Shown here one piece after another: positions 26,791-39,530 of a stretch of 64,000 nucleotides of DNA. Source of the stretch: Chlorobium sp. (GTDB taxonomy: Bacteria; Bacteroidota; Chlorobiia; Chlorobiales; Chlorobiaceae); NCBI GenBank assembly GCA_005862225.1, contig SZXV01000011.1, positions 62,001 through 126,000 on the forward strand, in the 5' to 3' direction. A program made the position numbers and the translations under genes. Numbering within the stretch: the stretch's first letter is position 1; each line of letters starts with the position of its first letter. Below the pieces are notes generated by a model. It worked only from the letters and a program-made list of their open reading frames with translations, searched no databases and had not been told where the DNA came from.

Positions 26791-27138
26791 ATGCCTAAAG
26801 CAAATAACGCCGTTGCCTCAAAAGCGCGGAGAAAAAGAGTACTCAAAAAAGCCAAAGGGTTCTGGGGATCACGCGGCAATATTCTGACCGTCGTCAAGCA
26901 CTCGGTCGATAAAGCTGAACAGTACGCCTACCGCGACCGTCGCGTCAAAAAACGCACCTTCCGTTCGCTCTGGATCATGCGTATCAACGCTGCTGCACGT
27001 CTGAACGGCACCACCTACTCCCGCCTGGTCAACGCCATGCTGAAGAAGAATGTCGAAATCGACCGCAAGGCACTCGCCGAGATTGCAGTAAAGGATCCGG
27101 CTGCCTTTGCACAGATTGTCAAATCGGTTATCGAATAA
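26791..27138 (+). CDS. rplT: 50S ribosomal protein L20
   Basis: 115 residues. Basic N-terminus with [18 protein letters not shown] and the central [20 protein letters not shown] typical of L20. It binds early to 23S rRNA. No L20-type leader is evident before infC, because the thrS-infC gap is only 23 bases. Confidence 0.98.
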
Positions 27139-27157
27139 GATTTACACTAGTACCATA

Positions 27158-28186
27158 ATGGAAGAGAGCATTCGCAGGTTACAGCAGGAGATTCTGGAGG
27201 TTGAGATAAAAGCGCAGGCCGATCTTGAAGCCTTCCGCCTCAAATACACGGTTCGAAAAGGGCTCATTGCAGCTCTTTTCGGCCAGCTCAAGTCGGTTGA
27301 CCCTGCTGACAAGCCGCGAATTGGTCAGTTGCTCAACCAGCTCAAGCAGACGGCTGATGCAAAGCTCACCGAAGCGGAGGAGCGACTTGCATCAACCGAA
27401 AGCAGCAGCAGCACCAAAGGCATTGACCTCACTCTCCCCGGACGACGCTCCTTTACCGGCAGCGAACATCCGGTACAGAAGGTGCTCGGCGAGATGAAGC
27501 AGATCTTTTCAGCCATGGGATTCGGCATAGCAACCGGCCCCGAACTGGAGCTCGACAGCTACAATTTCGACATGCTGAACTTTCCGCCCGACCACCCCGC
27601 TCGCGACATGCAGGACACCTTTTTCGTCACCAGCGGCAACCCCGGCTCCGACGTGCTCCTCAGAACCCACACCTCCCCGGTGCAGGTGAGAGTCATGCTC
27701 GACCAGAAACCGCCGATACGGGTGATCTGCCCCGGAAAGGTCTACCGCAACGAAGCGATCAGCTCCCGAAGCTACTGCGTCTTCCACCAGCTCGAAGGGC
27801 TCTACATCGACAAGAAGGTCTCCTTCGCCGATCTCAAAGCCACCATCTACTCCTTCGCCAAACAGATGTTCGGCACCGACGTCAAACTCCGGTTCCGCCC
27901 AAGCTTTTTCCCCTTCACCGAACCATCAGCCGAGGTCGACGTCACCTGCTACCTCTGCGGCGGCAAGGGATGTAAAGTCTGCAAAAAATCAGGCTGGCTC
28001 GAAATCATGGGCTGCGGCATGGTACACCCCAACGTCATGCGCAACTGCGGCATAGACCCCGAAGAGTGGTCAGGCTACGCCTTTGGTATGGGCGTTGACC
28101 GCACGGTGCTGCTGAGGTACAAGATTGATGATATACGGTTGCTGTTTGAAAATGATTTGCGGATGTTGAGGCAGTTTGGGGCGTAG
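27158..28186 (+). CDS. pheS: Phenylalanyl-tRNA synthetase alpha subunit
   Basis: 342 residues from ATG at 27158; an upstream in-frame start at 27107 lies inside rplT and is not used. The N-terminal coiled coil (20-90) binds tRNA. The class II core has [29 protein letters not shown] in parts, [10 protein letters not shown] (motif 1 side) and [12 protein letters not shown] (motif 3). It also has a [17 protein letters not shown] insertion with four cysteines, common in this family. pheT is not adjacent; the next gene converges from the opposite strand at 28202. This marks the left edge of the accessory island. Confidence 0.97.
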
Positions 28187-28201
28187 AGATTGCAGGAAAA
28201 G

Positions 28202-29845
28202 CTACTTCGCCCACCTTCTTTGCCATTCTGATTCAGTTGTTCCAACTCTTGAAACATTTTTCCCATAACTATGAGCTAACCTAAGTACAAGTTCACTTTT
28301 AAGCGTTGCAATCCATTCATATTTTTCAGATGTTGCATTGGTGAATACCCACTGGTTATGGTCCTTGATTGCGTGTATTGGTGTTTGAGCTTTTTGAGGG
28401 GTGAAATTCAATGTGCGAATCTCGAAAGCCTTGTCATTAATCTTTAGGGTTAAAGCATCAGACTGACCGTTAGCAATACATATATCAAATCTGTCTTTAT
28501 TTAAAAGTAGAGGAAGGAAAAGAAAATGCCTGCCTGCTTTCGGTATTCGAACACAATCACATGCAGGCTGAATGCAAATCAAGTACTTTATTGTACCATC
28601 TTCAAAAGTCTGGCTAAGAATGGTTCCTGATTCTAACGTTGGGGTTGAAGACTCATAAGAAGTTTTACACGATAACATATAGGATAGGTCCCTGTCAAGA
28701 CTCATTGCCTCCTCTGGTTTCTCGGCAAATATTGCAGTTATTTCACTCAATACAGATTTATTTTTTTCGTGCTTTAAATTGCTAATCTGTTTATAGAATA
28801 ATTTATTTTTTTTATCTAACTTTGCTTCGCTTACTCCGTTTTTAAGGAGTTTCAATAATTGCTCTTTTGCATGTTCGTTGCTTTTATTGACATGTATTCT
28901 TGTTCGAAATTTAATGCCGTTTTTATTTTGTTCTTCAATCCAAGATTCTGCTGCCATATAATTAGCTTGTGAGGCGACATTATCCTCTTCAAGAATTCCT
29001 TGAATATGGGAAACAATTAACTGAACGAGTTGCCTTTCAGCCTCTTCAGGTGGTGCGCTCATAATCTTATGAGAAAGGTATGCGGCATCAAGTCTACTTG
29101 GAAATTGCGCAATAAGTTTATGTGAATTATTTCTAAGTGCAGTTAATGCAGCTAAGGCGGTATTCGGAAGGAGCCCATTTACTGATTGTGAAAAGAAAGA
29201 AATTAACTTTGCAGGAAGTTCTTTTTCATTAACAACAGATCCTATAAAGTGGTCTGGGATGCCATGCTTTTCTTTCGCATAAATAATAATTGTGATAGAA
29301 TGATATCGCAAACAAAGTTCTTGATCATTCTTATCAAAATCCAATTTGTGCCGTTGTTCAATATGGTCATGTATTGCAGCAGATATTGAGCTTAAATCTG
29401 GTGATGCAGTATAAATAGATATTAACCGAAACCGTTGTGGTGATTTCAAATCATCACTCAACAGTCTTGAAATTAAGTTAAGAGCGTTTATGCCTGTTTT
29501 TTCTTTTTCCATTTCCCAGTCAATAATTACAATATCCGCTCTTTTTGCTGTTTTTATGAATGCAATCGAGTCGTTTTCATAATCTTTAAAGTCAAGAGCC
29601 CCACAGATAATTCCATGCTCAGCAAAGCTTTTAGTTAGGGCTTGAGCATCCAAGCCGCATTCTTTAATGGCTGTTTTTTTGGGGAACCAATCTTTTAATA
29701 GTGACGTCTGGCTTCTTCCTGGTGTTTCTGAAAGAATCTTTGGCTCAACAGGGTTTTTTAAAAGCAGTTTATCATCAATAATAACTGCTGTTTGTAGAAA
29801 TTCGCTACAAACTTTCAACGATCTCTCAGAAAATCTATTAGTCAT
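28202..29845 (-). CDS. Receiver-domain protein of the methyltransferase/GHKL operon
   Basis: 547 residues. The first 170 form a divergent response-regulator receiver: paired acids D24-D25 in AVIIDDK, phospho-acceptor D109 in DIVIIDWEME and T146 in ISIYTASPD. An insertion of about 40 residues follows the acidic pair. The remaining 370 residues match no effector domain that I can name. They include a Lys-rich helical section (300-370) and a C-terminal beta-rich part with YLICIQPACDCVRIPKAGR. It starts in a TAATG overlap with the kinase-like gene and has AGGAGG. It is probably the output protein of a phosphorelay within this operon. AT-rich compared with pheS. Confidence 0.7.
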   Translation of the reverse strand: MTNRFSERSLKVCSEFLQTAVIIDDKLLLKNPVEPKILSETPGRSQTSLLKDWFPKKTAIKECGLDAQALTKSFAEHGIICGALDFKDYENDSIAFIKTAKRADIVIIDWEMEKEKTGINALNLISRLLSDDLKSPQRFRLISIYTASPDLSSISAAIHDHIEQRHKLDFDKNDQELCLRYHSITIIIYAKEKHGIPDHFIGSVVNEKELPAKLISFFSQSVNGLLPNTALAALTALRNNSHKLIAQFPSRLDAAYLSHKIMSAPPEEAERQLVQLIVSHIQGILEEDNVASQANYMAAESWIEEQNKNGIKFRTRIHVNKSNEHAKEQLLKLLKNGVSEAKLDKKNKLFYKQISNLKHEKNKSVLSEITAIFAEKPEEAMSLDRDLSYMLSCKTSYESSTPTLESGTILSQTFEDGTIKYLICIQPACDCVRIPKAGRHFLFLPLLLNKDRFDICIANGQSDALTLKINDKAFEIRTLNFTPQKAQTPIHAIKDHNQWVFTNATSEKYEWIATLKSELVLRLAHSYGKNVSRVGTTESEWQRRWAK

Positions 29846-32796
29846 TATTTATCCTCCTCTTGGTAGAGAGCGATCCTAAAGGTAGCTCCTTTTTCGGCTT
29901 TTTGTTGATCAAGGATAAGTGTATAGCCTACTCTCTGGAGCACATTGCGTGATATGTACAAACCCATTCCGCGGCCACCTGGTTTTCTTGTAAAACCTAG
30001 TTCAAAAATTGATTCTCTATCTCGTCCTGAAATTCCCGGCCCAGTATCACTTATGATCATATCATCGCCATCAATATCTAGTTGAATAATTTTTTCTGCA
30101 GTTCTATTTTTCAACCAAAAAATTGCATTATCCACAAGATTAACAAAAACGGGATAAAAGGAAGAAGGATATCCTGTAACTGACTTATTAAGAAATGCTT
30201 TACTTGACTTTATTTCTATTGAATGCCGTTTTAATCGTTCGCCAAAAAGATCGTTTAAGTATTTGCTAATATCTGCCCCTTCAAATGTAGTCTCTGTCCT
30301 ATAAAGCCGGCGATGGAGGGGAGTAAAAAGTGTAAGGTAACTATCCAAATGGTCGAAGCTATCTCGTATGCCTGAGTATACTTCCTCTAAGCCTTCGTTG
30401 AGGTCTGCCCATGCTTTTAGTTCACGAAGTCGATTCCTGACTCCTGTGATGCTACTGTTAAATTCATGATTGATCACTTCGATCGCCATACCCATTTGGG
30501 TAAGCTGTAGGTCAGCATCAGCAGCCTCTTCCAGTGTAATAACTTTTTGCTCTAAGGCCTCTAGTTGATCAAGTTGTGTGATATCTCCATCAAGTCGGAT
30601 CGCATCAAGTTGGTTTCTTATCCCAATTAGAAAATTACCTTCTCGAGTAGAAACATCCTCAATTTGTAATTCCAATTGGGTTCGTTTTTCGACAATCTTA
30701 TCATCTGGGAATTCTGTAATGTTCAAGCTGTTAAATTCACTGAAAACCTTTGCGATTTCGTCTTTTACATTTGAAAAACTCATAGAAATCGCTTTCTTGG
30801 TTTCAGCTGCAACAGTGAGTAGTGACTCCCGTGTTTTCTTTGTTTCTATATTTGTCAATGTTGTCGCTTCTTTTTCACAAGCCTTAAGAGCATTTTCAAT
30901 TCTTAACCTGCGATCGAGCTCAAGTCTGGCTTCTTTTGCTGCTGCAGTAATTTCCTGTTCTATTAGTTCCTGTGTTGGTTGAAATACTTTTTCTAGAATA
31001 CCGATCATTGCATTTTCATAATCAACCCAGTCTTTGAGTGTTTTATTTGATAACCCTATTTTAGGTTTCGTAATCTTATATTTTGAAATGAGTTCTCTGA
31101 GCTTCTGAACTGATTGTTCTTCTATGATCATCAGCTCTTTTGCCGCTTGATGAGGATTCTTTATTTCTCTAACTCTGTTCAAATTTTGTGTTAATTGTTC
31201 CGTGATTTTAATTGCATCCTTTTCTGGTGCAGACTCGTCATATAATCTAAAGAATCTCTCCAGTTCTGATTCAAATTGTCCTTTTCGCACAGAAATAAGC
31301 CTTGCTCTCTTTTCTTCTGCTTTGTGTAACTTCCTAAAATGATCTTTTTTATCAATAAATTGGCCTGCCTTAGCTCCACCCTCCCTAAAGAAGTCTGCAG
31401 CCAATTGAAGGAAGAAATTTTCTAAAATACTTTTTAGTTGTCGGTATGCGATATTTTCAGAAAATCCTTCTCGTCCAGCCTTCTCCTTTAAATCAGGGTT
31501 ATTTTCATTTGAGATTTCTATAGCTCCAAAAATACGCCTATGTGAAAAGTGATAAAAACTTGCGGATTTTGTTCTTCTATACTCCATGCCGACCCAGTCG
31601 TAGTCTGTATCCCCATAAGGAAGAATGCGGATTCCGTTTTTGAAAACATAGAGGCCCCCTTGTCGATCCATCTTTGTCGTCAGAGCATTCCACTCTTCCA
31701 TTGGTATTGTGCTTTCTCGCAAGTTTCCTTGTACATCAGCAAAAGCAATTTTAAACGGACCGCATTTAGTTACCATCCCTTGGCTTTTCCATGGTACTAC
31801 ATGATTTTTATATTCCTCACCATATATTGATATGGTTCCTTTAAACTGACCATATTGATCGAATTCACCGGTGATATGATGGTCAGCGTTAATAAATTCA
31901 GTAGGTGTAAAAAATCTATTTTTATCAATCAGATCAACAAATATTGTATCTGTTGAATAGTCCCGAAACGCACAATCTATTACAGGTTGTTCATGACCTG
32001 GTGTCATTGTATTTGTAAAACCAAGCAGTGCCTTTTCCAATGGTGATGCTTTTTCTTTAGAACTTCCTACAATATCGGCAATCAATAATTCTGTTGCAGG
32101 TTTAATAATAAATTGAGTTCCTGTCCCACCATATCTCAAGGATAGGCAGTCAGTGTTTTTCAGGTAGGCATCGATGTCGAAAGGGTTAACAGTAAATGAT
32201 AACAACTCTAATTCAATTCTTTTTTTTATCTTCTCATCTTCTTTTTTTATTTGTTTTAAATTAGTTTTGAATTCATCAACCATTTCAAGAATATCTTCTC
32301 CAGTTGGTAATGTATCTCCAGTAAATTCTCTTATAGGTATATCAATGTCCTCCAGGTTTATTCCAGGAACCTCGAAGATGCCCCAGTTTAAAAACGCAGC
32401 GATTAAATTATGCGATTTTCCATCACGTTTTGCTCTGGTCATAACGAGCACTTGTGGACCAATGATGGCAATAGAAAGACGCCCTATTCCTTTTTCTCCA
32501 AGCATTGGGCGCCTTTTCTTTGTGGGGAAGGGTTGAAGAATAGGCATTGCATTGGAGTTTAACTTACTTTCTGTTCCAATTGTCAGCCATCTGCTCTCAA
32601 ATTCTTCTCGTGTCATCCCGATTCCATTATCTCGTAAAACGAAGAGTAGATCTGATCTGTAAAAGTCGATTTCTACGTTGTCCGCGTAAGCATCATGGGC
32701 ATTCTTAAAGAGTTCACTAATAGCTGTAGGGATGCCAGCGATTTGCTGACGTCCCAGCATATCAACAGTGCGTGCTCTTGTCTTAAATTTTGCCAT
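29845..32796 (-). CDS. Protein with two GHKL ATPase domains: MORC-like and histidine-kinase-like
   Basis: 983 residues from ATG at 32796. The N-terminal GHKL fold is of the Hsp90/MutL/MORC kind: N-box ELFKNAHDAYAD (28-39), DNGIGM (56-61) and GEKGIGRLS near 100. A long helical and coiled-coil centre follows. An H-box-like ALE-VINHEFNSSI region comes next, with H777. The C-terminal kinase ATPase has NLVDNAI (886-892), DTGPGI (917-922), GFTRKPGGRGMGLYI (932-948). So it may both act as a conformational ATPase and phosphorylate the receiver protein encoded next. Its start overlaps the methyltransferase stop by 14 bases, so coupled expression is likely. MORC-like GHKL ATPases are known around restriction-modification systems; having both ATPases in one chain is less usual. 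Confidence 0.8.
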   Translation of the reverse strand: MAKFKTRARTVDMLGRQQIAGIPTAISELFKNAHDAYADNVEIDFYRSDLLFVLRDNGIGMTREEFESRWLTIGTESKLNSNAMPILQPFPTKKRRPMLGEKGIGRLSIAIIGPQVLVMTRAKRDGKSHNLIAAFLNWGIFEVPGINLEDIDIPIREFTGDTLPTGEDILEMVDEFKTNLKQIKKEDEKIKKRIELELLSFTVNPFDIDAYLKNTDCLSLRYGGTGTQFIIKPATELLIADIVGSSKEKASPLEKALLGFTNTMTPGHEQPVIDCAFRDYSTDTIFVDLIDKNRFFTPTEFINADHHITGEFDQYGQFKGTISIYGEEYKNHVVPWKSQGMVTKCGPFKIAFADVQGNLRESTIPMEEWNALTTKMDRQGGLYVFKNGIRILPYGDTDYDWVGMEYRRTKSASFYHFSHRRIFGAIEISNENNPDLKEKAGREGFSENIAYRQLKSILENFFLQLAADFFREGGAKAGQFIDKKDHFRKLHKAEEKRARLISVRKGQFESELERFFRLYDESAPEKDAIKITEQLTQNLNRVREIKNPHQAAKELMIIEEQSVQKLRELISKYKITKPKIGLSNKTLKDWVDYENAMIGILEKVFQPTQELIEQEITAAAKEARLELDRRLRIENALKACEKEATTLTNIETKKTRESLLTVAAETKKAISMSFSNVKDEIAKVFSEFNSLNITEFPDDKIVEKRTQLELQIEDVSTREGNFLIGIRNQLDAIRLDGDITQLDQLEALEQKVITLEEAADADLQLTQMGMAIEVINHEFNSSITGVRNRLRELKAWADLNEGLEEVYSGIRDSFDHLDSYLTLFTPLHRRLYRTETTFEGADISKYLNDLFGERLKRHSIEIKSSKAFLNKSVTGYPSSFYPVFVNLVDNAIFWLKNRTAEKIIQLDIDGDDMIISDTGPGISGRDRESIFELGFTRKPGGRGMGLYISRNVLQRVGYTLILDQQKAEKGATFRIALYQEEDK

Positions 32797-33889
32797 TAAT
32801 TTCTTCAATATGTTTGACGAAATGGTTGCCCATCGCAAAGGATAGATCAACAGGGACAGCGTTTCCTATTTGTTTTGCCATAGAGTTAAGGTTCCCTGTA
32901 AATTGAAACTGGTCATCAAATCCCTGTAAGCGAGCAGCTTCTCTAATGCTTATAGCTCGATCTTGTTCAGGGTGTCCAAACCTGCCGTTAGAATAACTTA
33001 TACAGCGGGTTGTTAGGCCAGTTGCTGGTTTGCTCCACCAGAGCCGCCCATAACAATCTGTATGACCAGAATGTTTTTTTCCTGACAAATTAGTTCGAGA
33101 ATAGCAATCTGGCCAGAGTGACTTTGGCCAGTTATTTCTACCCCCTCCATCAGGGGAAGATGCTTTAATTCTCATCATATTAAGTTCAGACAAATTGGCA
33201 GCTCGGTGATTTTGTATAAACGAATCTATATATTCTTCTCCTGCAGTTATAGGCGGTAGGTCTTCAATAGCATCACGAACAGTTTTGTAGGGCTTCTCAC
33301 GACTTTGACCGTGGGTTGGGGTTGGTAAGTTTATAGGCCAGTGTTTACTTGCCAACAATACAAAACGTCGACGAAGTTGTGGTGTACCATAATCCTGGGC
33401 AGCAACCACACCGCAGTCCATTTTGTATTCTAATCTTTCAAGTAGTCTTTTAAATTCTGGGTATGGGCCTTGCTCGTGTGTAGGGACTTTCTGTAAACCA
33501 GGAACATTTTCTATAAACACAAAATCTGGCTTGTATTCTTCGATTATCTGTCCGAACCTCGTTAATAAGTTTTTGCGTTTATCGAGTAAAGGGCTTTCTG
33601 TTTTTTGCTTAGTAAATGGCTGGCAGGGAGCACATCCACAGAAAAGCTTATAACTGTCGTTATATTTGTCAATAACGGGTTGCAAATCAAAAGATGTGAG
33701 ATTTGTAATACTCTTGTGACAAAATACTGAATCTGGAAAGTTTAGGCTAAAAGTGTTCTTGACATCTTGGTCTATATCCAATGCAAAAACAATATCTATT
33801 CCAGCTTTTTGAAACCCTCTACTTGTCCCGCCACAACCACAAAAGAAGTCAAATGCGGCTATTTTTTTATTTTTTCTTATTTTAGCCAT
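32783..33889 (-). CDS. DNA (cytosine-5) methyltransferase
   Basis: 368 residues with the C5-methyltransferase motifs in order: FDFFCGCGGTSRGF (SAM binding), CAPCQPF with catalytic C89, FIENVPGL, QLRRRFVLLA, a target-recognition stretch of about 90 residues, and QIGNAVPVDLSFAMG. It should methylate cytosine at an unknown site. It is the first gene of the three-gene operon and overlaps the GHKL gene. No restriction nuclease is recognised beside it. AT-rich codon use suggests acquisition by transfer. Confidence 0.93.
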   Translation of the reverse strand: MAKIRKNKKIAAFDFFCGCGGTSRGFQKAGIDIVFALDIDQDVKNTFSLNFPDSVFCHKSITNLTSFDLQPVIDKYNDSYKLFCGCAPCQPFTKQKTESPLLDKRKNLLTRFGQIIEEYKPDFVFIENVPGLQKVPTHEQGPYPEFKRLLERLEYKMDCGVVAAQDYGTPQLRRRFVLLASKHWPINLPTPTHGQSREKPYKTVRDAIEDLPPITAGEEYIDSFIQNHRAANLSELNMMRIKASSPDGGGRNNWPKSLWPDCYSRTNLSGKKHSGHTDCYGRLWWSKPATGLTTRCISYSNGRFGHPEQDRAISIREAARLQGFDDQFQFTGNLNSMAKQIGNAVPVDLSFAMGNHFVKHIEEINGKI

Positions 33890-34783: not shown

Positions 34784-36076
34784 TCAATCCTGAACAAGCT
34801 CACCCATCTCCAAAAACTTCCCCCTGCACCTGTACTCATAGCTGCAGTCAATCCCAACCAGCCCGCTTTTGATCAGATGCGCATTGACAAAGGTCTTGTT
34901 CTCCAGATAGAGGTAACAGAGCAGGACGTTTTCTTCGTCATGTTTCAGCTTGTCATACTTCAGGAAGATACGCTTTCCCTTGATTTTTTCGGTCAGATAC
35001 CCGACTGCTTTGTCGTGCGTGAAGGGTTCGCTCTTGATGCCGATCAGTTTTACTGTCAACCCGTTGGATAGCCTCACTTTTTCGGGACTGAGTATCTCCT
35101 TGACCGTGAAGAACTCTTCGCGCTCTGCCTCGCTCTCTTTCTCAATCCTGGAGCCAAAAGTGAGTTTTCGGGGATCTGTTTTTTTATCGAGCTTGTGGGG
35201 ATCTTTGAACTGGTAGGGCAACTGCTCAATGGCTGCGGTAACATCGCCCTTGACCGTGTCGTGCAGAAACTCGTATTCCGTGCCCATAAAATCGGGCTGC
35301 CGGGTGTTGAGCTTCTGTTTGGCAATCTCGATAAACTCCCGATTGATTTCGTACCCGACCGAGTTTCGTTCGAGATTCTTTGCGGCAAGTGAGGTTGTCC
35401 CGCTGCCCATGAAAGGATCGAGCACCGTATCGCCACGAAAGGCGAACATTTTGATGAGCCGGTGCGGAAGCTCTTCGGGGAACATGGCAAGATGCCCCTC
35501 CTGTTTTGCTCCGGCAAAGTTCCAGTGGCCCGAGAAGTAGGTGTTCCACTCCTCGGTGGTCATGGCTGAGCGCTCTTTCTGCTCTTTGGTGGGCTTTGGA
35601 GCGTCGCCCTGTTTTTTGAAGATGAGAATGAACTCGTAGTCAAGCTTGAGAATGCCGTTGCGGGGGTAGGGAAAGCTCCCCATGATTGAGGCACCGCCGG
35701 TGGTGTTGGTTGTGGTGACCTTCTGCCAGATCACCGCGCCCATGTAGTCGAACCCGATGGTCTCGCAGAACTTGATGATCTCCGTCCGGATGGGAATCAC
35801 CTTGTACCTGCCATAGTAGACCGAGCGGGCAAACTGGTCGCCGATGTTGATGCAGAGACGGCAGCCGGGATGCAGCACCCTCTCGCATTCGTTCCAGACA
35901 AGGTTCAGGTTGTTGATGTAGCTCTCGTAACTCTCGTGAAAGCCGATCTGCTTCTCCGTCCCGTAGTCCTTGAGCTGCCATTAGGGTGGCGAGGTGACAA
36001 CAAGATGCACCGACCTGTCAGCGAGGAGGTTCATCTGTCGGCTGTAGCCGTGGATTATGGTGTGGTGGCTCTTCAA
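34784..36076 (-). pseudogene. DNA methyltransferase (beta class) with SNase-like domain, broken by a stop in the SPPY motif
   Basis: Read from TTG at 36076, the frame has 431 codons with one internal TAA at codon 32 (35981-35983). This codon is the Tyr of catalytic motif IV: VVTSPP-stop-WQLKDYG. The rest is intact: HPGCRLCINIGDQF and DPFMGSGTTSLAAKN (SAM-binding motif I), so motif IV comes before I, as in N4-cytosine/N6-adenine enzymes. The last 100 residues (VRLSNGLTVKLIGIKSEPF...CYLYLENKTFVNAHLIKSGL) resemble a staphylococcal-nuclease fold, but the arginine expected near D-x-x-G-R is absent. A protein restarted at ATG 35878 would lack motif IV. Two fragments of the same gene lie at 37473 and 39221. 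Confidence 0.82.
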
Positions 36077-36152: not shown

Positions 36153-36920
36153 TCATGCAGCCAAATCATCCCGATAGTTTTCTCTCTGGGACCAAAGAAG
36201 AGGTTTCAGATCGTAATTTCTCAAAGCATCAACTACCGATGATGAGACAATGGAACCTGTATCATTGAGAAATACGTAAAGCCGGGAATCGGACGCTCTG
36301 GTCTCTTTTGTGTCAAACCATTTAAAAACGAGCGCTTCTGCAGATTCCTTCCTCGGGTTTGCTATTGCCTGAACAAGCCGTTCAGGCTGTTTCCTTGATT
36401 TTGGTATGACAAAATCGAACATGTGGTCATAACCGCTTTTACCTGTAAATTTTATCTTTGGGGTATATCGAATATCTGACAGCTCAAACCAATTGGTTAC
36501 ATCTTCGACAAAAAGGCTTGCAACAAATGGCGATGCCAGATAAAAAAGATCGTTTACCGCCAGCATAGCCTGAATGATTGTGTGCTTTTTAAGCGAAAAG
36601 TTTTCGGGCGTTGTATGAACAATCAGTTGATCGTTGTCAAGCTGCACACCAAAACCAGCCAAAGTGGTTTTAAGCAGATCCTGACGTTTTGGGCTATCAA
36701 GCTGGCAACCAGAACTGACAAGATCACTCATGGTGTACCCGTCATCGGTAAGCATATAGCCAGCTCCTTCTTTTCGAGCATATATCTGCAAACAATCGTT
36801 ATGGCGGTCAATGTAAGGAGTGGTTATTTCAACCCAGTCCGCACAAATCTGTTTGACAATGGTTTTGTCTTTGAGCCACTGAGTATATTTTTCGAGTAAA
36901 GTATTGATTTCTGCAATCAT
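36153..36920 (-). CDS. DUF1828/DUF1829 protein
   Basis: 255 residues from ATG at 36920, overlapping the previous gene's stop (ATGA). The N-terminal half has the DUF1828 signature: ITTPYIDRHNDCLQIYA and GYMLTDDGYTMSDLVSSG. The C-terminal half fits DUF1829 (FTGKSGYDHMFDFVIPKSRKQPERL). The biochemical function is unknown. The pair with the DUF6978-like gene upstream suggests one module, possibly toxin-antitoxin or defence, but this is not shown by the sequence. Confidence 0.75.
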   Translation of the reverse strand: MIAEINTLLEKYTQWLKDKTIVKQICADWVEITTPYIDRHNDCLQIYARKEGAGYMLTDDGYTMSDLVSSGCQLDSPKRQDLLKTTLAGFGVQLDNDQLIVHTTPENFSLKKHTIIQAMLAVNDLFYLASPFVASLFVEDVTNWFELSDIRYTPKIKFTGKSGYDHMFDFVIPKSRKQPERLVQAIANPRKESAEALVFKWFDTKETRASDSRLYVFLNDTGSIVSSSVVDALRNYDLKPLLWSQRENYRDDLAA

Positions 36921-37360
36921 GTGAATAACTCCTGAAGAATAATCGGTTTGGTAATCACCGCGCAATAATCCATAAACTCATGCAATATTTGCCAGGTATT
37001 CGTACTGTTTGAAAACTGGTTCGGTAATGGAATTGCCCATTTATCCCCGTGACCTTCTCTATAAACATGAAGATGCGGGCATGGCATTTCCTCTCCATCT
37101 GGATTCCTGTGTGGTGCACCTCCAATATCAATGCGCGCAAGAACAATGGCCCTGTGTGCCCGAAGTTGAAATGTGTTTTTTTTCAGCTCAATACGGCCAC
37201 GGGTAATGTCAAGGTTAAACTCTTCCCGCATAGCCAAAGAATGCAATGGAATTCGCAATGCACCTCCGAGGCTTGGAAAGGTAAAACTTTCAGTCCCTGT
37301 ATAATGCTTTTCTATCGAAAGTAATGCATCGGCTTCTTGCTGCATCAAAATAAAGCTCAT
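36917..37360 (-). CDS. DUF6978-like protein, partner of the DUF1828 gene
   Basis: 147 residues from ATG at 37360 (MSFILMQQEADALL); an upstream start at 37402 is possible. Conserved-looking stretches are FPSLGGALRIPLHS, EEFNLDITRGRIELKK, GGAPHRNPDGEEMPCPHLHVYREG and DKWAIPLP. The HRNPDG...CPHLH cluster of His, Asp and Cys could bind metal, which is my inference. It is translationally coupled to the DUF1828 gene. The function is unknown. Confidence 0.65.
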   Translation of the reverse strand: MSFILMQQEADALLSIEKHYTGTESFTFPSLGGALRIPLHSLAMREEFNLDITRGRIELKKNTFQLRAHRAIVLARIDIGGAPHRNPDGEEMPCPHLHVYREGHGDKWAIPLPNQFSNSTNTWQILHEFMDYCAVITKPIILQELFT

Positions 37361-37472
37361 CAGCACTCTGTGAATAATTTTTCCAACGGGAGAAAAATAC
37401 ACAATTCTTGTCAGTTTTGTGAGCTTGAAATGAGGAAAAAAAGCAGGATGCTTATGTCGTCATGCTTCTGCC

Positions 37473-37526
37473 CTCCTTCCGAATGGGAATGACCTTGTAC
37501 CAGCCATAGTAGACCGAGCGGGCAAA
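37473..37526 (-). repeat. Small fragment of the methyltransferase gene
   Basis: About 54 bases match 35785-35838 of the methyltransferase pseudogene (codons around VYYGRYKVIPIRTE) with a few mismatches. It ends three bases before the stop of the next gene. It is too short to code and marks a recombination footprint. Confidence 0.8.
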
Positions 37527-39099: not shown

Positions 39100-39220
39100 G
39101 GCTTCATTTTTATGTTCTCAAGCTATCACGGATACCTCTCAATAACTTTGCTACTGGCAATTTATGCCAATTATTGACAAATATACAATAACGTCAGTCC
39201 CTTTTTACGCACCTATTAAT

Positions 39221-39530
39221 CAAGCTTGAGAATGCCATTCCGGGGATAGGGAAAGCTCCCCATAATCGAAGCGCCGCCGGTGGTGTTGGTTGTGGTGACC
39301 TTCTGCCAGATCACCGCGCCGAAGTAGCCGAACCCGAGGGTCTCGCAGAATTTGATGATCTCCGTCCGGATGGGAATGACTTTGTACCTGCCATAGTAGA
39401 CCGAGCGGGCAAACTGGTCGCCGATGTTGATGCAGAGACGGCAGCCGGGATGCAGCACCCTCTCGCATTCGTTCCAGACAAGGTTCAGGTTATTGATGTA
39501 GCTCTCGTAACTCTCGTGAAAGCCGATCTG
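39221..39530 (-). repeat. 310-base fragment of the methyltransferase gene
   Basis: Aligns without gaps to 35641-35950 of the methyltransferase pseudogene. I count 15 mismatches over 310 bases, about 95% identity. It covers the codons from QIGFHESYES to NGILKLD, so it lacks both the SPPY region and the C-terminal half. It ends nine bases before the stop of the ATPase gene. Confidence 0.95.

What the first reader, a model, noticed from the sequence alone, without database searches (positions are those of the whole stretch)
28202..33889. Three-gene operon: C5-cytosine methyltransferase, double-GHKL ATPase/kinase and receiver protein
Seen: three minus-strand genes with overlapping ends (14 bases, then TAATG). 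The first is a complete C5-methyltransferase. The second has a MORC/Hsp90-like GHKL domain (E28..N32, DNGIGM) and a kinase-type GHKL domain with an H-box histidine (H777). The third has a receiver (D24, D25, D109, T146). No nuclease is recognised. Known: MORC-like GHKL ATPases are found around restriction-modification systems. Inference: DNA methylation marks self. The ATPase senses unmethylated or invading DNA, phosphorylates the receiver, and the receiver protein's unknown C-terminal part acts as effector. A phosphorelay as the switch of a DNA-modification defence would be unusual.
Basis: partly seen in the sequence, partly recalled or inferred. Interest (0 to 1): 0.88.

Follow-up and report, generated by a model that had tools for sequence, protein, structure and literature searches.

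The report
Cytosine-methylase, ATPase-kinase and receiver gene cassette
A bacterial three-gene cassette that probably marks the cell's own DNA and uses a phosphate-relay switch to react to unmarked DNA; this gene set was predicted in print in 2021, and what is added here is that related switch pairs also sit beside quite different DNA-marking systems.

Summary
In detail: three intact minus-strand genes encode a C5-cytosine methyltransferase (368 aa), a protein with a MORC-like ATPase plus a histidine-kinase core (983 aa), and a receiver protein (547 aa). [quoted passage not shown] A survey by receiver alone agrees: 71 of 75 loci have kinase plus receiver, 61 of these 71 the methylase upstream on the same strand. 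Kinase and receiver diverge together (rho 0.78); the methylase follows only weakly (0.29), so it looks exchangeable. The receiver's C-terminal part, unknown to Pfam, is modelled as helices plus a beta-barrel with a conserved C-x4-C-D motif. Related kinases, with both ATPase halves, and receiver candidates follow cysteine desulfurase-SspBCD on a Methylorubrum plasmid, face SspBCD in an Acinetobacter record, and lie in SspBCD/Pbe-like loci of two further genomes. I favour this: the pair is the restriction-side (effector) module of modification-based defence, usable with methyl or sulphur marks. Phosphotransfer, defence and effector chemistry are inferred, not shown.

The parts
32783..33889 (-). 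C5-cytosine DNA methyltransferase, 368 aa (PCQ at 88-90, ENV at 127-129)
   Evidence: PF00145 196 bits against cut-off 22; P88, C89, Q90, E127, N128, V129 invariant in 65 of 65 aligned
29845..32796 (-). double-GHKL sensor kinase, 983 aa: MORC-like GHKL+S5 module (about 4-481), long helical stretch (about 478-760), HEF_HK/DHp with H777 (767-833), HATPase_c catalytic domain (879-977)
   Evidence: Pfam; model mean pLDDT 81.3; MORC3 Z 19.0 and histidine-kinase matches Z about 18; E28, N32, D56, H777, N890, G919 invariant in 60 of 60
28202..29845 (-). receiver protein, 547 aa: REC domain (16-193), helical middle (198-392), C-terminal beta-barrel (about 405-547) with C424-x4-C429-D430, R433, R533
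   Evidence: PF19192 118 bits; model mean pLDDT 88.2; REC Z 11.9; conservation in 67 sequences
29267..29800 (-). REC domain of the receiver protein (residues 16-193, with D24, D25, D109, T146, K191)
   Evidence: D24 67/67, D25 59/67 (rest N or E), D109 67/67, T146 59/67 (rest S), K191 61/67
28205..28633 (-). C-terminal beta-barrel of the receiver protein (about residues 405-547), proposed output domain
   Evidence: strands between 408 and 515 and two end helices in the model; related stretch found in receivers that PF19192 does not match

Best explanation
The cassette is a modification-coupled defence system in which the methyltransferase marks the host's own DNA and the kinase/receiver pair is the restriction-side (effector) module. 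Proposed steps: (1) the methylase modifies a host site [sequence shows an intact enzyme; activity inferred]. (2) The kinase is a dimer held at two ends, by its MORC/MutL-like N-terminal ATPase gate and by its DHp helices, joined by a long helical stretch; ATP-dependent closing of the N-gate on DNA, or on a complex formed at unmodified DNA, reports invading DNA [anatomy from models; clamp action inferred from MORC/MutL relatives]. (3) Closing activates autophosphorylation of H777 and transfer to D109 of the receiver [residues conserved; chemistry not shown]. (4) Phosphorylation frees the C-terminal Cys-Asp beta-barrel domain, which carries out or recruits the attack; a tightly linked fourth gene, present in 26 of 68 loci, may add to it [inferred]. 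The pair is not tied to 5-methylcytosine: related pairs lie beside Ssp phosphorothioation genes, so it behaves as an exchangeable effector for different DNA marks.
For: Conserved order methylase-kinase-receiver across phyla, found with the receiver alone: 71/75 loci with kinase and receiver; kinase end within 100 bp of, or overlapping, the receiver ORF in 70/71; methylase upstream on the same strand in 61/71. Identity of kinase and receiver is correlated (rho 0.78, window plus 54 loci) whereas kinase-methylase is 0.29 and receiver-methylase 0.18: partners versus exchangeable mark. Related kinases beside other modification sets: cysteine desulfurase (by annotation)-SspB-SspC-SspD-kinase-receiver candidate on a Methylorubrum plasmid, SspB/C/D convergent to the pair in an A. 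baumannii record, SspB/C/D + PbeA/PbeC-like genes + the pair in G188 and the same eight genes in G283; a type II methylase before the pair in Allorhizobium. All 10 such kinases match profiles of both halves of the long-form kinase, N half 41.8-85.2 bits and C half 70.5-110.1, against at most 1.2 for reversed copies. PMC12421847 (passages) reports sspE missing beside Ssp in 5,518 of 5,530 A. baumannii cases and names a histidine-kinase two-component system in the region as a possible new variant. Catalytic residues of both ATPase domains, H777 and D109 are conserved. Of seven receiver candidates chosen only because they lie next to a related kinase, six score above every reversed control with the long-form barrel profile and five have [TNQS]PxCD.
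Against: No phosphotransfer, DNA-binding or phage data exist here. In 38 of 60 kinases the Asp of the second ATPase's DxG box is Asn (Asp in the window's protein), so autokinase activity may not be general. No nuclease domain was found in the cassette, and the barrel has no secure fold match: no Foldseek hit at E <= 0.001, hhalign against MazF/PemK at most 0.5%. Two phosphorothioation-linked receiver candidates are weak for the barrel (L147 no motif, 5.1 bits; L149 motif present but 1.0 bit, below the best reversed control of 1.8), L146 lacks the motif (15.3 bits), and the long-form REC profile hardly reaches any of the short forms; the motif pattern was fixed after some of these proteins had been seen. 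Related pairs in Enterobacter, Devosia and Sinorhizobium records have no recognised DNA-modification gene in the stretch seen, although those stretches hold many unscanned hypothetical genes. All three identity correlations exceed nearly all of 199 permutations (P 0.005, 0.005, 0.015), so the methylase is not wholly independent. PADLOC recognises neither kinase nor receiver of the window as a defence gene (only the N-terminal ATPase part resembles REase_II models), and the window neighbours scanned are not known defence genes apart from methylase remnants and a ParD-type antitoxin.
Confidence: 0.5

Rival explanations
1. A regulatory two-component system: the pair senses a state of the DNA or nucleotide pool and adjusts expression or activity of the methylase and neighbouring restriction genes, without being an effector itself. 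This is close to what the 2021 authors proposed.
For: Classical REC and kinase architecture; the discussion of PMC8011034 speculates about signalling that controls R-M systems. Variable genes, some of them nucleases, next door in part of the loci could be the controlled output.
Against: Among the 25 of 36 families listed for 67 receivers the only DNA-binding-type match is one weak winged helix (1 of 67, E 0.089). 42 of 68 loci have no tightly linked same-strand downstream gene for it to control. No gene is named sspE, sspF, sspG or sspH in the annotation of the Ssp-linked records, but hypothetical genes there were not scanned.
Confidence: 0.17
2. A DNA-repair or chromosome-maintenance set: the MutL/MORC-like ATPase, with Vsr where present, deals with T:G mismatches or other side effects of 5-methylcytosine.
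For: The N-terminal module is MutL/MORC/Hsp90-like; Vsr genes adjoin in part of the loci and Vsr acts with MutL (established knowledge, recalled).
Against: Related pairs occur with phosphorothioation genes; no Vsr lies beside the window cassette; the family was seen in none of the 40 relatives searched besides the window's own genome, the patchy spread of a mobile gene set.
Confidence: 0.08
3. An ordinary type II R-M system whose restriction enzyme is encoded elsewhere or has been lost; the pair is only an accessory.
For: Some loci have nuclease genes nearby: HNH_2 in 6 and Vsr in 6 of 52 first downstream genes scanned, Vsr in 6 of 41 upstream genes scanned. The N-terminal ATPase resembles that of the BbrUII/HgiDII restriction enzymes (NF050001, residues 9-125, 68 bits, far below its cut-off of 550).
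Against: Kinase and receiver are conserved while the neighbouring genes vary.
Confidence: 0.15
4. An abortive-infection device: the receiver's barrel is a MazF/PemK-type RNase (or another toxin) held off while the host mark is present.
For: In the whole-model Foldseek search MazF-mt9 and MazF chains appear with probabilities 0.91-0.98 and TM by target 0.52-0.56, but E 0.07-0.14 and rmsd 5-6; the aligned range is not shown, so that they match the barrel is my inference. The order G[TD]I - hhhCh[TQ]PxCD - FxFLPL reads like the first three strands of a MazF barrel (my reading, not a computed alignment).
Against: Profile comparison gives no support; PF02452 is not among the 25 families listed of 36 for 67 receivers; the two top Foldseek rows are DH/PH fragments at probability 0.21-0.25.
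Confidence: 0.1

Closest known systems
HEF_HK (PF19191) / Response_reg_2 (PF19192) two-component-like pair with C5-methylase (Bellieny-Rabelo et al. 2021, PMC8011034)
   Same: Same domains, C5-methylase frequently upstream, same HATPase_c_3+HEF_HK+HATPase_c layout (their group 1, 174 of 222 sequences)
   Different: Nothing in the window's genes departs from it. Added here: models of both proteins, a conserved C-terminal barrel, evidence that the methylase is exchanged, and related pairs beside Ssp/Pbe-type phosphorothioation genes
paraMORC GHKL ATPases of R-M systems (Iyer et al. 2008, PMC2292703)
   Same: N-terminal GHKL + S5 module next to a cytosine methylase, sometimes Vsr
   Different: Carries a histidine-kinase core and a receiver partner; no SFII helicase in the window cassette
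SspABCD-SspE / SspABCD-SspFGH phosphorothioation defence
   Same: Modification set plus separate effector; related kinase/receiver pairs lie directly beside such modification sets
   Different: The window has a methylase, not SspABCD; the pair was not compared by sequence with SspE or SspFGH
Detocs (defensive two-component system)
   Same: Phosphorelay logic in a three-gene phage-defence system
   Different: Best-described form has an ATP-cleaving PNP effector; no PNP match here, and a DNA methylase instead
A. baumannii Ssp variant without sspE (PMC12421847, 2025)
   Same: A histidine-kinase two-component system in the Ssp region, proposed there as a possible new variant
   Different: Not linked, in the passages seen, to HEF_HK/Response_reg_2 or C5-methylase cassettes

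Membership tests
HEF_HK kinase family | match to PF19191 above curated cut-off, with HATPase_c_3 and HATPase_c | tested here: met
   97.1 bits against 24.1; HATPase_c_3 55.6 against 25, HATPase_c 69.1 against 26.4
Response_reg_2 family | match to PF19192 above curated cut-off, active-site Asp | tested here: met
   118.3 bits against 27; D109 67/67, partly by construction; 8/8 among profile-found receivers
C5-cytosine methyltransferase | PF00145 with PCQ and ENV motifs | tested here: met
   196.3 bits; 65/65
Two-component system | phosphorylatable His and Asp in paired proteins | tested here: met
   H777 60/60, D109 67/67, adjacent ORFs 70/71
Two-component system | actual His-to-Asp phosphotransfer | not testable with these tools
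   needs purified proteins
MORC proper | GhXhhpXXRhl motif in the S5 domain (from PMC2292703) | tested here: inconclusive
   exact spacing absent from the window protein and present in 1 of 60; a relaxed form with variable spacing fits 55 of 60
paraMORC-type GHKL | GHKL + S5 module beside R-M genes, without the MORC motif | tested here: inconclusive
   MORC3 fold Z 19.0, 328 aligned and methylase adjacent; motif test ambiguous
Type II restriction-modification system | cognate restriction endonuclease | tested here: inconclusive
   no nuclease family in the three proteins; the fold of the receiver's C-terminal part is not securely assigned
Detocs | PNP effector domain on the response regulator (best-described form) | tested here: not met
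   no PNP match in the receiver by Pfam or PADLOC at E <= 1; definition from a glossary passage
Ssp system | SspABCD genes with the pair | tested here: not met
   no such family among the 10 window neighbours scanned with Pfam; the window has a methylase instead
Phage defence system | protection against phage | not testable with these tools
   bench test needed

The most novel reading that the evidence does not exclude
The ATPase-kinase/receiver pair is a mark-agnostic restriction module: one phosphorelay-controlled effector family that plugs into cytosine methylation, other methylation and Ssp/Dnd-type phosphorothioation alike, with a previously unnamed Cys-Asp beta-barrel on the receiver as the effector and the MORC-like clamp as the self/non-self reader.
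Probability: 0.33. Interest if true: 0.85.

Novelty: new member of a known kind. Interest (0 to 1): 0.55.

Why it matters
If the pair is the effector, then many cytosine methylases without a restriction enzyme, and Ssp loci without a nuclease, would be complete defence systems with a phosphate switch in place of a restriction enzyme. That makes a standing puzzle, nuclease-less modification islands, directly testable with two point mutants (H777, D109) and a barrel mutant. It would also give bacterial MORC-like ATPases, relatives of eukaryotic silencing factors, a simple experimental system.

Tried and rejected
Receiver C-terminal part by sequence: Pfam on 67 members (25 of 36 families shown, all but PF19192 weak and in one or two members), NCBIfam and PADLOC on the window protein, and a profile of 67 sequences against PDB chains (one hit, E 0.14, glomulin, middle region) gave no family. 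Foldseek against PDB and BFVD: no hit at E <= 0.001. A MazF/PemK relationship was tried by hhalign against 20 sequences taken from 30 PemK loci (10 dropped by a motif filter; one kept row is a fragment): 0.5% against 0.2-0.9% for four other profiles, and 0.3% with five added receivers against 0.1-1.2%. I do not call it MazF-like beyond fold hints.

Viral collections: none of 55 pattern matches in IMG/VR was confirmed; no receiver match in 50,697 phage records; 1 match in 72,556 plasmid records with the window's receiver, against 140 plasmid records for the kinase, most of them partial (3 of 140 cover 80% of it).

A repair-only reading was put low because of the phosphorothioation loci. A statistical enrichment test for defence genes around the cassette, with matched random regions, was considered and not done; the enrichment claim rests on PMC8011034. 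Paper searches bearing on the pair gave PMC8011034, PMC12421847 and a figure legend of PMC13092281 (HATPase and REC among domains of predicted, unvalidated systems) but no experimental study of the pair; the library holds only open-licence papers. I did not read supplements or figures.

Weakness of counts: relatives were found by patterns that include D109-W110 and the C-x4-C-D motif, so conservation of those is biased upward. Four of 75 loci lack a called kinase or receiver ORF (L036, L082, L083, L089) and are counted as misses. ORF starts are mechanical. The identity correlations used the window plus 54 of 75 loci, those with all three proteins within length limits. First-gene scans used 52 of 68 downstream and 41 of 61 upstream neighbours; I left out very short or doubtful ORFs by eye. 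L150's receiver was found by a search with another short receiver, so it is left out of the count of seven.
Full report
What is there. The window carries three complete minus-strand genes at 33889-28202: a C5-cytosine methyltransferase of 368 aa, a 983-aa protein with two GHKL ATPase domains, and a 547-aa receiver protein. Pfam places DNA_methylase (196 bits), HATPase_c_3 (56), HEF_HK (97), HATPase_c (69) and Response_reg_2 (118) far above their cut-offs, and finds nothing in receiver residues 194-547.

Structure. AlphaFold models were built from alignments of window and relative proteins. The kinase (mean pLDDT 81.3) has an N-terminal part, residues 4-481, that matches the mouse MORC3 ATPase best (Z 19.0, rmsd 4.0, 328 aligned; Hsp90-type and SMCHD1 chains also appear) and a C-terminal part that matches sensor histidine kinases (for example 3a0t, residues 833-978, Z 18.2, rmsd 2.1, 140 aligned), with a long helical stretch between. 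The S5 motif that PMC2292703 gives for MORC proper is not present with its exact spacing (1 of 60 kinases), but a form with variable spacing fits 55 of 60, so MORC against paraMORC is left open. The receiver (mean pLDDT 88.2) has a REC domain (Z 11.9 to PhoP, rmsd 2.6, 120 aligned), a helical middle and a C-terminal beta-barrel with two end helices.

Relatives. A scan of one genome for each of 84,980 species with an alignment of eight receivers gave 75 loci from many phyla. The scan used the receiver only. By phmmer at 1e-5, 73 of 75 have a receiver ORF, 71 have receiver and kinase, 64 also a C5-methylase. In 70 of 71 the kinase ends within 100 bp of, or overlaps, the receiver ORF; in 61 of 71 the methylase is upstream on the same strand, in 3 elsewhere nearby, and in 7 none is seen, but in six of these seven the kinase runs off the contig end. 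H777, the N-terminal ATPase residues E28, N32 and D56, methylase C89 and receiver D24 are invariant in the alignments; in 38 of 60 kinases the second DxG box has Asn for Asp, the window's protein having Asp. The receiver family is rare: the window's own genome is the only one of 41 searched near it, and 8 of 394 genomes of the phylum sample, the own one included, are over the family cut-off.

Partners and the exchangeable mark. Over the window and 54 loci with all three proteins, pairwise identity of kinase and receiver correlates at rho 0.78, kinase and methylase at 0.29, receiver and methylase at 0.18 (permutation P 0.005, 0.005, 0.015). The window's methylase is 65-73% identical to those of four loci (L043, L051, L076, L028) whose kinases are only 41-45% identical, while its closest kinases (50-53%) come with methylases at 36-52%. 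The methylase therefore seems to be swapped between cassettes. That fits a sensor that does not read the methylase's own target sequence, or reads it through the methylase.

Nucleases. Of 68 loci with a called downstream gene, 26 have one on the same strand within 100 bp of the receiver: six in one sequence cluster, three in a cluster that I take to be Vsr, three in a cluster of about 597 aa, the rest diverse. Among 52 first downstream genes scanned, 6 match Vsr, 6 HNH_2 and 5 AAA_15/AAA_21; among 41 upstream genes, 6 match Vsr. So a nuclease is an optional extra, not a conserved fourth part. In the window the receiver gene ends 15 bp from the convergent pheS gene, and upstream lie an N4/N6 methylase remnant and genes of unknown function.

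Related pairs beside other marks. Searching 394 genomes of the phylum with a profile of the receiver's C-terminal part gave 12 genomes with a match at E <= 0.01, some of them receivers that PF19192 misses. One (L138, E 0.002) is a vsr-methylase-double GHKL-REC operon with a classical PF00072 receiver. Two others, in genomes G188 and G283 of one genus, lie with SspB, SspC, SspD, PbeA- and PbeC-like genes and a 153-aa protein; the families were assigned in G188 and the same eight genes found in G283 at 46-73% identity. Plasmid records that match the window's kinase show the long cassette in Pseudoalteromonas, Pantoea and Rhizobium, in the last with methylase and vsr after the receiver; a short kinase-receiver-dcm set on a Campylobacter plasmid; a type II methylase before the pair in Allorhizobium; adenine methylase-cysteine desulfurase-SspB-SspC-SspD-kinase-673-aa receiver candidate on Methylorubrum pME152 (the first two by annotation); and SspB/C/D convergent to a kinase-637-aa pair in an A. 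baumannii record. A Hymenobacter plasmid found with a short receiver has vsr-methylase-kinase-receiver. Enterobacter, Devosia and Sinorhizobium records have the pair with no recognised DNA-modification gene in the stretch seen, Devosia having a small SAM-dependent methyltransferase of unknown target.

Are they the same kind? All 10 kinases of these shorter or phosphorothioation-linked sets match profiles of both halves of the long-form kinase (N half 41.8-85.2 bits, C half 70.5-110.1; reversed copies at most 1.2), and those of L136, L147, L148, L149 and L151 are one subgroup (322-502 bits to L136). For the receiver candidates the evidence is thinner. Of seven chosen only by lying next to a related kinase, six score above every reversed control with the long-form barrel profile and five carry [TNQS]PxCD; L147 (5.1 bits, no motif) and L149 (1.0 bit, motif present) are weak, and the long-form REC profile hardly reaches the short forms.

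How it most likely works. In the Methylorubrum plasmid the pair directly follows the modification genes, and in C5-methylase loci it directly follows the methylase, where an effector would be expected. I infer that it is the restriction-side module: a MORC/MutL-like clamp as reader, autophosphorylation at H777, transfer to D109, and release of the receiver's C-terminal barrel as output. Anatomy and conservation are shown; every chemical step and the defence role are inferred.

What is known. PMC8011034 (read: parts 1-4 of 7 and the discussion) named both domains, found 91.6% linkage in 644 regions, C5-methylases frequently upstream, Vsr and HNH_2 nearby, and suggested a paraMORC origin and control of R-M. 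It says that Response_reg_2 was found in proteins lacking any other known domain. PMC2292703 (parts 1 and 2 of 4 read) described paraMORCs in R-M systems. PMC12421847 (passages) notes the A. baumannii Ssp loci without sspE and a histidine-kinase system in the region. PMC10853773 (passages and term search of the main text: 0 hits for histidine kinase, receiver, GHKL, MORC, two-component) treats Dnd and Pbe loci; its supplements and figures were not seen. Detocs (glossary passage in PMC11249213) is a precedent for a defensive two-component system. PMC13092281 (passages and a figure legend) lists HATPase and REC among domains of predicted, unvalidated defence systems. The window's cassette is thus a member of a predicted, untested kind; the link to phosphorothioation sets and the shared barrel are what I add, and in the searches I saw no paper stating that HEF_HK/Response_reg_2 pairs and the Ssp-linked pairs are related.

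Noticed in passing
window 27107-28202; L174, L177: The 3' end of pheS looks like an insertion hot spot in this genus: a partial pheS copy (621 nt, 99.5% identical) lies on another contig of the same genome, another genome has two full copies 11 kb apart, and further fragments occur in others; different genes follow pheS in the relatives looked at.
   Followed up: partly
window 35637-35936 and 39217-39516: A 300-nt direct repeat (95% identical) of part of an N4/N6 methylase gene, with a 54-nt piece also at 37473-37526; the methylase at 34784-35878 has a weak staphylococcal-nuclease-like C-terminal part (20.3 bits, cut-off 21).
   Followed up: no
window 36153-37402: Adjacent genes with DUF1828/DUF1829 and DUF6978, of unknown function.
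   Followed up: no
L175 2378-7065: In a close relative pheS is followed by three convergent ORFs, one with a cytidine-deaminase domain and two without a Pfam match.
   Followed up: no
L144 1013-11844 with L136 8725-12992; L137 and L145: Two genomes of one genus join SspB, SspC, SspD, PbeA-like and PbeC-like genes, a 153-aa protein and the kinase/receiver pair: a mixed Ssp/Pbe-type system.
   Followed up: partly
L143 5986-10439: A conjugative Campylobacter plasmid carries a short kinase-receiver-dcm set; 41 of 43 plasmid records matched by the short receiver of L138 are Campylobacter.
   Followed up: partly
kinase residue 917 (window about 30046-30048): In 38 of 60 aligned kinases the Asp of the second ATPase's DxG box is Asn, which may bear on whether all members are active kinases.
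   Followed up: no
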